Positions 36,921 through 40,925 of a DNA stretch of 64,000 nt are shown in pieces. The notes under the pieces were generated by a model. The model saw only the letters and a list, made by a program, of their open reading frames with translations. It did no database searches and was not told where the DNA came from. The position numbers and the translations under genes are program-made. The stretch's first letter is position 1. The number at the start of each line of letters is the position of its first letter. Source of the DNA: Romanomermis culicivorax (taxonomy: Eukaryota; Nematoda; Enoplea; Mermithida; Mermithidae); contig CAWUHX010000509.1 of the NCBI GenBank assembly GCA_963922205.1, positions 29,361-93,360 of the forward strand. The letters are read 5' to 3'.

Positions 36921-39900
36921 TTATTGTTGCTGCCCCCCGCCTTGCTGCTGGCCTTGTTGATGACCTCCGCGACCTCGGAATGCACCACGAGGGTGTTGTC
37001 CTCGGTATATACCTGGGCCACCAACGTAACCAGCTCTGCCTCTGTTCTGATTGTTAAAATGAAACTGGCCTGGTTGGGCACCCCTTCCCCGTCCTCCACG
37101 AGCTCCCCTAGCACCCTGTAGATGCTGTATAGGTTGCTGTTGTTTCGGAACGGTTCTGGAGGCTTGCCCAGTGCCAGAACTGGGGCCAGCGAAGACCTGG
37201 TTGGCTATACCAACCGTGGCTCCTTGACCACCAGTTTGACTGCTTGCGGGTCCGGGTGCCTGAAAGGTCTGTCCCGCATCGTTCTGAACTTTGCTAAATT
37301 TAACAGTAGTCGGAGGACTTGGGCTACCTGACCTTTTGACATCCATCTCCGCCGCTTGTTGACTGTAATTATACATCACCAAGCAATAGGCAGTCTTAAA
37401 AACATCCGAAGCAGTGGCACTCCGATATTCCTGTAACAGCATGATGTTTGCAAACACTTTGGCTGAGACCGATCGTTTACCGATCTGCTCAGCCGTAAGT
37501 GGTGCATAGTCAAGCATAAGGAATATCATCATACACAAATATCTGACAGCTGCAAATACGACGCTCGCTCGATATTCCGTGAGCCATTCAAGGACAATTT
37601 CACGAATGATCCTATCCCATAGTGGCTCTGGAATATTTCGCGAGTCGTATAAAAATCCACCTTGGACATCAAACTGTGGCTGATACAGTTTGTATATAGT
37701 CCTGACCGCTTTATTGACCATCAGCCAAATCTCTGGATCTTCAAACTGCTCGTCGCAGAAATAATTAGCCAATTCCGGTGTAGCAAAAGAAATTGGACCT
37801 CTGGCTCTACTTTTATCTTTGGTGACTTGCCAAAAATCCAACAATACATCCTGGAATAACTCTACCGTCATTTCTGGTGTTTGTTGATTTGGGTCAACAG
37901 TAACCAGAGTTAACGGCTTTATCTTTCCTGGTGTAAAGATTTGAACTTTTTGTCCTGCAACCTGTGGCTTGCTAGGAGCTCCCTGCACCTTAGGCTGACG
38001 ATGTCCGGAAGCAGAGGTGTCCGTAGCCTGCGACACAAATTGCGTGGACTGACTCGTTGCCATCGATAAAGTACCTGTAGAGACAGTCTGCGACACAGGA
38101 GTAGTTGAAGATACGGTGGTCACGGATACCCTTGCTGAAGCCGGAGCAGAAGTTTTGGCAGGTTTCGGCTGCGTAACCTTTGCAGGCTGCGCAATTGCCT
38201 TTTCTACCTTTTTCTTCTCCTGACGGGCTTTTGTTTTTCGTTTCTTTTTCAAGTTAACGAAAATTTGCCTATCATTTAAACCTTTTATTTTCATATTTTT
38301 TATTGCCTCAGCAGTATAGTATCCGGGAACACCTTCTTTATCCCAGGTCAAGGCTAATACTTGAATTTCCTTATCCTCTTCAGCCAGCCGGGCCGCTAGT
38401 TCTTGTGGTGTTTCCACCACAGTATGGCTAGGTGTCCCTGCTGTCTGTTCTTCCTCCTTTTGCTTCACACCTTCGGCATCCATGTACTCACTAATGTAAG
38501 CTTGCTCATACACGTTCTGCTCATCCTGGGCAATCGGAATTTCTTCCGATTGCGCTTGACTTTCTACGCTAGACAAGTACTGACTCGCATCCATAGATGT
38601 TTGTATCGCTTGTGGCGTAGGTAAGCCAGGCGGCGGTGGCAGCATTTCCGTCTGCAGCTGCGTCACAACTTGTGGTTGCGGTTGCAACTGCGTGACAGAG
38701 GATGCTGTCATCGCAGATTCGGCTACTTGGGGGTCGGCGATCGAAATATACAATAATGCGTCTTCGTCGTCCACCTCCTTGCAGCTTTTCTCTCCCAGGA
38801 GTGCGGAATTATCCTCATCCTCACTTTCCAATTCTGTGACGTCCTCGTCCACTAGACCCGTTTGAACTGTGGGTTCATTATCAGGGTCTAGTATATCAGA
38901 TTTCGTCCTGAAATCGGATTGTTTGGTTTGATTACCATATGAATAGGTAACCATGGGTAATTCCGACGGCAGAGGCCTCCGGTGAATACACTTTTCAGGA
39001 AATTCAATAGTATACAACGGATAATCAGCCGGTATACATCTGATCTGACCCGTCTGAAGAGTAGGCGTGTCTGGTGATAGGCCATATCGCAGTGACGGGG
39101 TTTTACTACCGAATTCCGCATAGTAGAATCTGACGTAGAAAAAGCAGTTGGCCCAATAATCCTTGTTATGGGTAATATTGTCCTTTGCTTTTTCCGTCGA
39201 AATTGGAGAACCTATTTTGTTGCGCAAGTGCAACTGAATAGGCATAAAACCAAACCTATTTTGCCATGTCGTAACCCTCTTGCCTTTTACAGCATGTTCA
39301 GGTTCCGTTGGCGGTAATGATGCTACTATGTCGTAATTCTGTAAAACCCTGTCATCGGTCTTCCATGCCATCTTCTTTATTAATTCTGCATCCTCCTTCG
39401 AGTAGGATTTGAGGAAATTATAATTCAATAATTCCCTCAGTATGTAATCGTACTCGGCACGGCTATGAGGCCAGAAAACAAAGAATGGTAGAGGAATTAA
39501 GTTGCATGCCTTTTCCAACACAGGGAACTTTGTTGAGTCCATGACATGCTCATAATTCCTCAAGTCCGCCATCCAGTGATCCCTGTCGTACTTAGCCATA
39601 CCGGTGTCGATTTCCACTGGTTCGTAGCAGTCCGTTCCGAGTTGAAACAATTGAAGCTGCTTCGACCAGTCCTGTCGAGGAGTCTTATTCATGGCAAGAC
39701 CGGCTGTGATATACCATACAACATCTACAGGATCCGTCAATTTGAAAAATGAAACCCCTTGCAACATTTCTGTGTGCAGTCGGTTTATCACCTCGTTTGT
39801 CCTATTGACCTGTTGTTCCATTGTATCCATGTCCTCCGGATCACTTACGTCTTCCCACTGATTTGTTTTCTTTTTGCTTGGACCAGCTTTTAGCGCCTTG

Positions 39901-40925
39901 GGATAAACCCCAGACAGTAAAGTGTGGTCCGTAGCTTTAGCGGGATTTTTAATATCCGCAGGACACGAATATTCTGGCAAGTCATTATGAAATTGTGTAG
40001 CCCACCTGGCCATTACCTCTTGCCGCATCATATGGTAGACCTTGAACAACTGCCTCTTTACGATGTCCTTCTCATCTACAAAGTTTCGATCCTCGAACCC
40101 CGTTAGGTCTTGAGAGTACACCGTATAAAAGCGGAAGGCCAAGGTCTTCACTTGGGCCGGCGATACAATATCATGGGGGTACGTTGCCGTAACCCCACTC
40201 AATTCACCGCAAAACCCGTAGTGAAAGAACCCTAAAAATACGGCAATTGAATAATAAGTGTCCAGGCCAGCATACACAATTTCTGTGTCTTGAATCTTGG
40301 GGGCCAAGAACTTTTCTCGAATCTTTTTGTCACCGAAGTCGCATTGGTATTTGCCGACATCAGCCAAGTAAAATTCGGTGAAAAGTCCTTTTAACCCAAG
40401 GTTTTCAGGACACAATCCTAAATCACGAGCGTGATTAGCCATGGGCCCCGTCATCAATCTGACGCAAATTTCACAGTCCCAATATTTTCCAAATCCTTGG
40501 AGTATACGGGCCTGTATAATTTTCGTCTTATCATGAGCCGAGGCCCCTGACCCGGATCCGTAGACGTTCAAAATTGCAACCAGATCGTCCACAACTTTGA
40601 AACCGACCAAGAAACGATCCACCGATGCCAGGAATGAAATCAAAAGATCCCATTCCTGCGGCTTCACTGTTGTAAGGTCGATCACAAAGCTGGAACCATC
40701 TATGTGTGCAAATGACACCAGCCTAGCGAACTCTTTCCCTTCCGGGTTCTGGATCGCTACCTTATAAGGTATTATACATACCTCGGTCTTCTTGACCTTT
40801 TCGACGTCAAATCCGACAACGCCTAGCCCCCGAAACTGGCTTGTGGCCAATTGCTTCAGGATCGGTTCGACGTTGCCGCCGTGAACCCGTTCGGGTTCCA
40901 TTGGTCGTTGCGGCCAATAACCCAT
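36921..40925 (-). CDS. ORF3: DEDDy 3'-5' exonuclease-like protein with RGG tail
   Basis: Intact 1334-codon ORF in the env position. Residues about 30-235 form an RNase D/WRN-like exonuclease fold by motif: FDVE (D40, E42), VGFKVVDDL (D113/D114) and Y218-A-G-L-D222, matching ExoI D-x-E, ExoII D and ExoIII Y-x3-D of DEDDy nucleases. Residues about 240-680 are unrecognised; about 690-800 is acidic then P/Q-rich; about 893-912 is a basic, NLS-like KKKRKTKARQEKKK; about 1005-1195 is a helical domain of unknown type; and 1272-1334 is RGG/Q-rich, typical of RNA binding. No signal peptide or membrane segment is seen, so it is not an envelope protein. The frame is open upstream to a TGA followed at once by a splice acceptor (AG at 40986-40985), suggesting expression from a spliced RNA and a start upstream of this ATG. 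Enzymatic activity is inference. Confidence 0.75.
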   Translation of the reverse strand: MGYWPQRPMEPERVHGGNVEPILKQLATSQFRGLGVVGFDVEKVKKTEVCIIPYKVAIQNPEGKEFARLVSFAHIDGSSFVIDLTTVKPQEWDLLISFLASVDRFLVGFKVVDDLVAILNVYGSGSGASAHDKTKIIQARILQGFGKYWDCEICVRLMTGPMANHARDLGLCPENLGLKGLFTEFYLADVGKYQCDFGDKKIREKFLAPKIQDTEIVYAGLDTYYSIAVFLGFFHYGFCGELSGVTATYPHDIVSPAQVKTLAFRFYTVYSQDLTGFEDRNFVDEKDIVKRQLFKVYHMMRQEVMARWATQFHNDLPEYSCPADIKNPAKATDHTLLSGVYPKALKAGPSKKKTNQWEDVSDPEDMDTMEQQVNRTNEVINRLHTEMLQGVSFFKLTDPVDVVWYITAGLAMNKTPRQDWSKQLQLFQLGTDCYEPVEIDTGMAKYDRDHWMADLRNYEHVMDSTKFPVLEKACNLIPLPFFVFWPHSRAEYDYILRELLNYNFLKSYSKEDAELIKKMAWKTDDRVLQNYDIVASLPPTEPEHAVKGKRVTTWQNRFGFMPIQLHLRNKIGSPISTEKAKDNITHNKDYWANCFFYVRFYYAEFGSKTPSLRYGLSPDTPTLQTGQIRCIPADYPLYTIEFPEKCIHRRPLPSELPMVTYSYGNQTKQSDFRTKSDILDPDNEPTVQTGLVDEDVTELESEDEDNSALLGEKSCKEVDDEDALLYISIADPQVAESAMTASSVTQLQPQPQVVTQLQTEMLPPPPGLPTPQAIQTSMDASQYLSSVESQAQSEEIPIAQDEQNVYEQAYISEYMDAEGVKQKEEEQTAGTPSHTVVETPQELAARLAEEDKEIQVLALTWDKEGVPGYYTAEAIKNMKIKGLNDRQIFVNLKKKRKTKARQEKKKVEKAIAQPAKVTQPKPAKTSAPASARVSVTTVSSTTPVSQTVSTGTLSMATSQSTQFVSQATDTSASGHRQPKVQGAPSKPQVAGQKVQIFTPGKIKPLTLVTVDPNQQTPEMTVELFQDVLLDFWQVTKDKSRARGPISFATPELANYFCDEQFEDPEIWLMVNKAVRTIYKLYQPQFDVQGGFLYDSRNIPEPLWDRIIREIVLEWLTEYRASVVFAAVRYLCMMIFLMLDYAPLTAEQIGKRSVSAKVFANIMLLQEYRSATASDVFKTAYCLVMYNYSQQAAEMDVKRSGSPSPPTTVKFSKVQNDAGQTFQAPGPASSQTGGQGATVGIANQVFAGPSSGTGQASRTVPKQQQPIQHLQGARGARGGRGRGAQPGQFHFNNQNRGRAGYVGGPGIYRGQHPRGAFRGRGGHQQGQQQGGGQQQ

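What the first reader, a model, noticed from the sequence alone, without database searches (positions are those of the whole stretch)
36921..40925. Gypsy retrotransposon with an intact third ORF carrying a DEDDy 3'-5' exonuclease-like domain
Seen: a 1334-codon uninterrupted ORF lies between integrase and the 3' LTR on the same strand as gag and pol, with D40-x-E42, D113/D114 and Y218-x3-D222 at the positions expected of an RNase D/WRN-type nuclease, plus a basic patch and an RGG/Q-rich tail. Known: this position in Ty3/gypsy elements usually holds env or nothing, and I know of no retroelement with a DEDDy exonuclease here. Inference: it may trim the primer, tRNA or cDNA ends, or counter host RNA-based silencing.
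Basis: partly seen in the sequence, partly recalled or inferred. Interest (0 to 1): 0.88.

Follow-up and report, generated by a model that had tools for sequence, protein, structure and literature searches.

The report
Nematode retrotransposon carrying exonuclease-like third gene
A multi-copy jumping gene of a mosquito-parasitic worm carries a real, naturally selected third gene that looks like an RNA/DNA-trimming enzyme and seems to be made from a spliced message; the same kind of add-on is already known from rotifer jumping genes, so this is a new case of a known oddity.

Summary
The ORF is real. It sits between integrase and the 3' LTR of a minus-strand Ty3/gypsy-type element (LTRs 49415-48819, 36014-35406). 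By size and contig count the genome is Romanomermis culicivorax v2, a mermithid nematode. ORF3 is no one-off: 35 of 35 scored copies (of 4426 candidates) are full length, 15 without a stop; among eight copies pN/pS is 0.12. A sister family keeps the whole ORF at 35% identity with D40, E42, D114, Y218 and D222 invariant (D113 is not). The window protein alone matches no exonuclease profile; six of eight exo-domain members match Pfam DNA_pol_A_exo1 (best E 4e-4; the L039 domain scores below the cut-off). Both AlphaFold runs were uninformative. The ATG given is probably internal: two exons (41716-41605, 40984-36921) with splice sites kept in the sister family, but only two of 16 R. culicivorax gene models use that junction and four start at the given ATG. 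The claim that no such retroelement is known is wrong: Rodriguez et al. 2017 described DEDDy ORF3s in bdelloid rotifer LTR elements. Best reading: a selected accessory 3'-5' exonuclease-type protein acting on nucleic-acid 3' ends in the element's RNP; substrate and activity untested.

The parts
48819..49415 (-). 5' LTR (TG...CA), followed by a putative PBS beginning TGGTGGC (read by eye)
   Evidence: 578/611 identical to the 3' LTR
46475..48817 (-). gag-position open frame (780 codons from a GTG; first in-frame ATG seen at 48724)
   Evidence: no Pfam match of note
42130..46596 (-). pol: aspartic protease, RT, RNase H, H2C2, rve integrase; interrupted by one in-frame TGA inside RNase H in this copy
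41764..41783 (-). putative 3' splice site upstream of exon 1 (...TTTACTTTAG|AAG)
   Evidence: AG kept in 8 of 8 aligned copies; similar site in the sister family. Upstream donor not identified
41605..41716 (-). putative ORF3 coding exon 1 (ATG at 41716; 37 codons plus 1 base), donor GACG|GTTAGT (GTAAGT in the 7 other copies)
   Evidence: peptide similar to L039 exon 1 (score 80, best of 2000 shuffles 43); gene models P0001 and P0011 carry the same junction
40985..41604 (-). putative ORF3 intron (620 nt)
   Evidence: not conserved at nucleotide level with the 638-nt intron of L039
36921..40984 (-). ORF3 exon 2 (contains the 1334-codon frame 40925-36921)
40191..40868 (-). DEDDy exonuclease-like domain (residues about 20-245; D40, E42, D114, Y218, D222)
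36924..37325 (-). acid-poor Q/G-rich RG-repeat tail (residues 1201-1334)
35406..36014 (-). 3' LTR

Best explanation
ORF3 is an accessory gene of a multi-copy, low-divergence Ty3/gypsy-type family in the mermithid nematode Romanomermis culicivorax. It is kept by purifying selection, expressed apart from Gag-Pol from a spliced mRNA (two coding exons; the start codon is upstream of the one given), and encodes a protein of about 1391 aa with an N-terminal DEDDy (RNase D/EXD-type) 3'-5' exonuclease domain and an RG/Q-rich tail. Most likely it binds the element's RNA or cDNA in the RNP and trims nucleic-acid 3' ends. Shown: gene, copies, selection, motif conservation. Inferred: exonuclease fold, splicing, activity, substrate.
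For: 35 of 35 scored copies carry the full ORF, 15 of 35 without a stop. pN/pS 0.119; 126 of 194 variable sites fall in third codon positions. A sister family keeps it over 1363 aligned columns at 35% identity while integrase is 69% identical. D40, E42, D114, Y218 and D222 are invariant in window, L039 and L040 and the three motifs in 8 of 8 window-family copies. PF01612 is the only Pfam family at E up to 0.1 and matches six of eight exo-domain members, best E 4e-4; in the genome-wide scan one sister copy passes the cut-off when neighbouring matches in its frame are added (24 against 23.6 bits). The window/sister profile aligns with the family B exonuclease at motifs I-II with E 8e-4. Exon 1, donor and acceptor are kept in both families and the exon 1-exon 2 junction is in two of 16 gene models. 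A second gypsy-type lineage in this genome (integrase 35% identical) also has a DEDDy ORF downstream of integrase, with exo-domain pN/pS 0.13 in 21 of 30 copies. Precedent: DEDDy ORF3s of bdelloid LTR elements (PMC5408684); the same paper says LTR-element ORF3s are typically expressed from spliced messages.
Against: The window protein by itself hits no exonuclease entry of Pfam, NCBIfam or the PDB. The L039 domain is below Pfam's cut-off (20.4 against 23.6 bits), and the whole L040 frame scores only 17.8 bits when scanned as a protein, against the 24 of the genome scan. The hhalign probability with family B is only 24%. A home-made DEDDy profile put the sister domain only marginally above 2000 shuffles (6.0 against 5.9 bits) and did not list the window at E up to 10. 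The PDB search with the L039 domain found no exonuclease. Both AlphaFold models have mean pLDDT of about 37. No RNA evidence was seen. Gene models disagree on the start: two of 16 use the exon 1 junction, three join other upstream exons to the exon 2 acceptor (P0007, P0009, P0014) and four start at the ATG of the finding (P0010, P0012, P0013, P0015). Two of the nine models that cover motif I have a changed catalytic residue (P0001 D-x-K, P0009 H-x-E), possibly dead copies.
Confidence: 0.6

Rival explanations
1. DEDD fold kept but catalytically silent: the domain binds RNA (as Maelstrom and EXD1 do) and serves RNP assembly together with the RG-rich tail.
For: PMC5408684 (passage) names Maelstrom and EXD1 as inactive DEDD derivatives that keep RNA binding; the C-terminal tail is acid-poor and RG/Q rich.
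Against: All four acidic residues and the motif III tyrosine are invariant between families 35% identical overall, which a dead enzyme would not need.
Confidence: 0.18
2. Counter-defence nuclease: ORF3 trims siRNAs or dsRNA precursors and blunts host RNAi, comparable in logic to arenaviral ExoN.
For: It appears to be made as a separate protein. Clade I nematodes keep RRF-3-type RdRP (PMC4323106). Arenaviral ExoN takes part in suppressing innate immune signalling (PMC7968707 abstract passage).
Against: The host is reported to lack piRNAs/PRG-1, and no 5'-triphosphate small RNAs were detected in R. culicivorax, so the best-known nematode transposon-silencing routes are absent. No small-RNA data were examined here.
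Confidence: 0.12
3. Not an exonuclease: the motifs are coincidental and ORF3 is an env-like or structural protein of other origin.
For: No direct profile hit for the window protein; no usable structure. Position and probable spliced expression are env-like.
Against: Motif residues are invariant and PF01612 is the only Pfam family at E up to 0.1, in six of eight members. The most hydrophobic 19-residue stretch (mean 2.16, from residue 1120) holds an internal Arg, so there is no clear TM anchor; signal peptides were not tested.
Confidence: 0.1
4. One-off capture of a host gene, or an assembly artefact.
For: None found.
Against: 35 of 35 scored copies and a diverged sister family.
Confidence: 0.01

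Closest known systems
DEDDy ORF3 of Juno and Vesta LTR retrotransposons, bdelloid rotifers (Rodriguez, Kenefick and Arkhipova 2017, PMC5408684; passages and section 3.3 seen)
   Same: LTR retrotransposon, extra ORF 3' of integrase, RNase D-like DEDDy domain, no TM domain reported, occurs in more than one LTR lineage of one genome, ORF3 expected from spliced messages
   Different: Host is a nematode; at least 35 copies; 1334-1391 aa with a long conserved C-terminal part; motif acids read D-E-D-D here, whereas the paper reports DEED; the word 'intron' does not occur in that paper. Sequence relatedness could not be tested: no rotifer sequences were at hand
DEDDy ORFs of Athena/Terminon Penelope-like elements (PMC5408684, PMC6431247 passages)
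   Same: Retroelement-borne DEDDy accessory gene
   Different: Different retroelement class (Penelope-like)
Dada DNA transposons with a DEDDy domain (PMC3706591 passage)
   Same: Mobile element with DEDDy exonuclease domain
   Different: DNA transposon; domain lies inside the transposase
Cellular RNase D / WRN-exo / EXD2 / Mut-7
   Same: D-x-E, D, Y-x3-D motif set; the family profile aligns motif III with EXD2 (E = 1, not significant); family B of the same genome matches WRN (E 5e-4) and an RNase D-like protein
   Different: No significant direct match for the window protein; long C-terminal region without a known relative

Membership tests
DEDDy 3'-5' exonuclease (PF01612 group) | Motif I D-x-E, motif II D, motif III Y-x3-D, conserved | tested here: met
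   Invariant in window, L039 and L040 and in 8 of 8 window-family copies; two of nine gene models covering motif I have it changed
DEDDy 3'-5' exonuclease (PF01612 group) | Profile match above curated cut-off | tested here: inconclusive
   Window none; six of eight members match, best E 4e-4; L039 domain 20.4 and L040 frame 17.8 against 23.6 bits; L040's place 24 bits with neighbours in the genome scan
DEDDy 3'-5' exonuclease (PF01612 group) | DnaQ-like fold | tested here: inconclusive
   pLDDT 36.9 and 36.8
DEDDy 3'-5' exonuclease (PF01612 group) | Metal-dependent nuclease activity | not testable with these tools
   needs purified protein
Ty3/gypsy LTR retrotransposon | LTRs, gag-position frame, then PR-RT-RH-IN order | tested here: met
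Ty3/gypsy LTR retrotransposon | RT phylogeny within a named clade | not tested
   no reference set at hand
Bdelloid-type DEDDy ORF3 elements (Juno/Vesta) | DEDDy ORF downstream of integrase, inside LTRs | tested here: met
   (DEDDy assignment as in the rows above)
Bdelloid-type DEDDy ORF3 elements (Juno/Vesta) | Clusters with retroelement DEDDy ORFs rather than cellular ones | not testable with these tools
   rotifer sequences not at hand; no rotifer name among the 16 hits (one of them unnamed) or the one hit
env-bearing errantivirus-like element | ORF3 with signal/TM/fusion features | tested here: inconclusive
   hydropathy and Pfam only: best 19-residue window 2.16 with an internal Arg; no Pfam env match; signal peptide not tested

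The most novel reading that the evidence does not exclude
A pool of DEDDy exonuclease genes circulates among gypsy-type elements of animals as different as rotifers and nematodes, and in this piRNA-less nematode lineages carrying one have reached high copy number; ORF3 is a doubly spliced, trans-acting anti-RNAi or RNA-processing factor that helps them spread.
Probability: 0.1. Interest if true: 0.75.

Novelty: new variant of a known kind. Interest (0 to 1): 0.45.

Why it matters
Enzymatic third ORFs in LTR elements were known from rotifers, where the authors report no significant departure from neutrality in their intragenomic evolution and no unambiguous link to copy number (PMC5408684 passages). 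Here two gypsy-type lineages in one nematode carry DEDDy ORFs under strong purifying selection (pN/pS 0.12 and 0.13) in many copies, which gives a better system to ask what such an exonuclease does for a retroelement, in a host whose small-RNA defences are unusual. In the listings of seven searches of the open-access library I saw no report of a DEDDy ORF3 in a nematode LTR element.

Tried and rejected
Direct profile and PDB searches with the window protein gave nothing of use. The full-length protein search scored 7999 candidates and found no homologue at E 0.001; the IMG/VR scan found none. AlphaFold with seven shallow rows and with one sequence both failed (pLDDT about 37), so no fold search was run. 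A home-made RNase D/family B profile was too poorly aligned to decide anything. In one search the comparison with the window used a wrong frame and is disregarded. The motif counts select for the motifs by construction, and its 'False' flags for motif III of L002-L008 only reflect A for T after YAGLD. The top hits (Psb28) and are judged spurious. A genome search for spliced (processed) copies, which could have proved splicing, did not complete.

Considered and dropped: counter-piRNA role (host lacks PIWI); assembly artefact or one-off capture.
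Full report
What is there. The frame 36921-40925(-) has 1334 codons. It lies 3' of a gypsy-type pol (aspartic protease, RT, RNase H, H2C2 and rve integrase) and inside two LTRs of 597 and 609 bp (49415-48819, 36014-35406) that are 94.6% identical over 611 aligned columns, with 29 of 33 differing columns in one stretch of about 120 bp. Pol of this copy is interrupted by an in-frame TGA inside RNase H. No target-site duplication is obvious by eye.

Host. The genome holding the window has 359,112,060 bases in 595 contigs. 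The Romanomermis culicivorax v2 assembly is reported as 359.1 Mb in 595 scaffolds (PMC10879605 Table 1, passage), and 15 of 16 protein relatives of the exo domain are named R. culicivorax. I take the host to be this mermithid nematode.

Copies and selection. A protein search of the genome scored 35 of 4426 first-look candidates; 35 of 35 are full length at 96-98% identity (the window itself at 100%) and 15 of 35 have no stop. Over eight copies (the window and the seven best-scoring others) exon 2 has pS 0.052 and pN 0.0062 (ratio 0.119, 28 pairs); variable sites fall 33/35/126 at codon positions 1/2/3. These eight were chosen by similarity, not at random. A sister family (L039, with integrase upstream) keeps ORF3 over 1363 aligned columns at 35% identity while integrase is 69% identical, so ORF3 evolves faster than integrase but is kept. 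L040 and loci L122-L126 and L128 are further copies of that sister family.

Exonuclease domain. In the three-way alignment D40, E42, D114, Y218 and D222 are invariant, while D113 is Glu in the sister family. Eight of eight window-family copies keep GFDVEK, VVDD and YAGLD. Of nine R. culicivorax gene models that cover motif I, seven keep D-x-E and two do not (P0001, P0009). The window protein has no Pfam match of this kind, even at E 10 for its first 249 residues. Six of eight exo-domain members of A6 match PF01612, the only family at E up to 0.1, best E 4e-4; L039's domain scores 20.4 bits and the whole L040 frame 17.8, below the 23.6 cut-off. In the genome-wide PF01612 scan (119 of 119 candidates scored, E up to 10) eight places that I could tie to the sister family score 13.5-21.1 bits; one of them, L040's, reaches 24 with its neighbours. 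The A2 profile aligns with the family B exonuclease at motifs I and II (E 8e-4, probability 24%). PDB searches gave only a non-significant EXD2 match with motif III in register (E 2 and 1); the L039 domain alone found no exonuclease. AlphaFold was uninformative twice. Membership in the DEDDy group is therefore probable, not proven.

Gene structure. Similarity to the sister family continues 21 codons upstream of the ATG at 40925, up to TTTTTAG|A. In the spacer after integrase lies an open exon from ATG 41716 to 41605 ending GACG|GTTAGT; the donor is GTAAGT in seven of eight copies (the window copy differs) and the acceptor is identical in eight of eight. L039 has the same arrangement (exon 1956-2061, GTAAGC donor, 638-nt intron, TTTTTTAG acceptor), and both read through in phase, to 1391 and 1399 residues. 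The exon 1 peptides are similar (score 80; best of 2000 shuffles 43). At nucleotide level 1 of 300 shuffles reaches the exon 1 score, 6 the start of exon 2, 11 the spacer before exon 1 and 25 the intron. The 16 R. culicivorax gene models do not agree: two (P0001, P0011) carry the junction FLTD-DYN, three (P0007, P0009, P0014) join other upstream exons to the exon 2 acceptor, and four (P0010, P0012, P0013, P0015) start at the ATG of the finding (one of the 16, P0002, bears no species name). They are predictions from relatives and fragments, not RNA evidence. A further conserved acceptor-like site precedes exon 1 (41764). This suggests an env-like, possibly doubly spliced subgenomic mRNA; the upstream donor was not found. 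Within the family the intron varies about as much as the exons on average (4.3% against 4.3-5.0% variable sites) and less than third codon positions (126 of about 1353), so its role as an intron rests on sites and phase, not on rate.

Other DEDDy elements in this genome. Family B has an ORF of up to about 610 codons downstream of an integrase that is 35% identical to the window's; 30 of 30 fetched loci show the family's signature and 25 of 30 an integrase-like motif within the fetched stretch. Its LTRs were not examined. Its exo domain matches PF01612 with E 5e-11 and 2e-13 in two copies scanned and WRN with E 5e-4. In 21 of 30 copies the domain is uninterrupted (selected by motif), with pS 0.456 and pN 0.059 (ratio 0.13, 210 pairs). 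L127 is a further type, 32% identical to family B, PF01612 E 2.4e-4; its context was not seen.

Prior art. Rodriguez et al. 2017 (PMC5408684; passages, section 3.3 whole) report DEDDy-type ORF3s in bdelloid Juno and Vesta LTR elements, acquired at least twice and shared with Athena elements, say that LTR-element ORF3s are typically expressed from spliced messages, and suggest 3'-end processing or silencing-related roles. PMC6338049 calls it a well-known accessory domain (passage); PMC6431247 and PMC5718144 also mention it (passages). New here, as far as I could see, are the nematode host, the copy number and selection, the two-exon structure and the long conserved C-terminal part.

Function. 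Commitment: a separately expressed accessory protein with a probably active DEDDy domain and an RG/Q-rich tail that trims 3' ends of element RNA or cDNA in the RNP. My estimates: selected gene 0.97; DEDDy homologue 0.88; spliced 0.75 (lowered from 0.8 after the gene models were found to disagree); catalytically active 0.65; acting on the element's own nucleic acid rather than on host small RNAs 0.5. A counter-piRNA role does not fit a host without PIWI (PMC4323106 passages).

Noticed in passing
window 7232-13000 (+): A decayed second LTR-type retroelement in which a Monjiviricetes-type fusion glycoprotein (PF24664, E 8.8e-9 at 9587-10123) lies between a gag-like part with zinc-knuckle-like motifs read by eye (7232-8300) and protease-RT (10.6-11.9 kb), instead of 3' of pol. 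Frames are broken; described only.
   Followed up: partly
window 31375-32885 (+): Remnant of a DNA transposon with Transposase_21 (PF02992, E 5e-7) and a weak DUF4218 match.
   Followed up: no
L127:277-1701 (G000 C429): A further, diverged DEDDy open frame (475 codons, 32% to family B, PF01612 E 2.4e-4); whether it is a retroelement ORF3 was not seen (requests 104 and 131 not answered).
   Followed up: partly
window 35825-35945 and the matching part of the 5' LTR: 29 of the 33 differing LTR columns lie in this one stretch and no target-site duplication is obvious: possibly a recombinant of two copies.
   Followed up: partly
window 41763-41717: A hypervariable A/T-rich stretch just upstream of the exon 1 ATG differs among the eight copies, although both sides are conserved.
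   Followed up: no
window 34281-35336 and 49468-49542: Related G/C-run repeats flank the element on both sides, suggesting insertion into another repeat.
   Followed up: no
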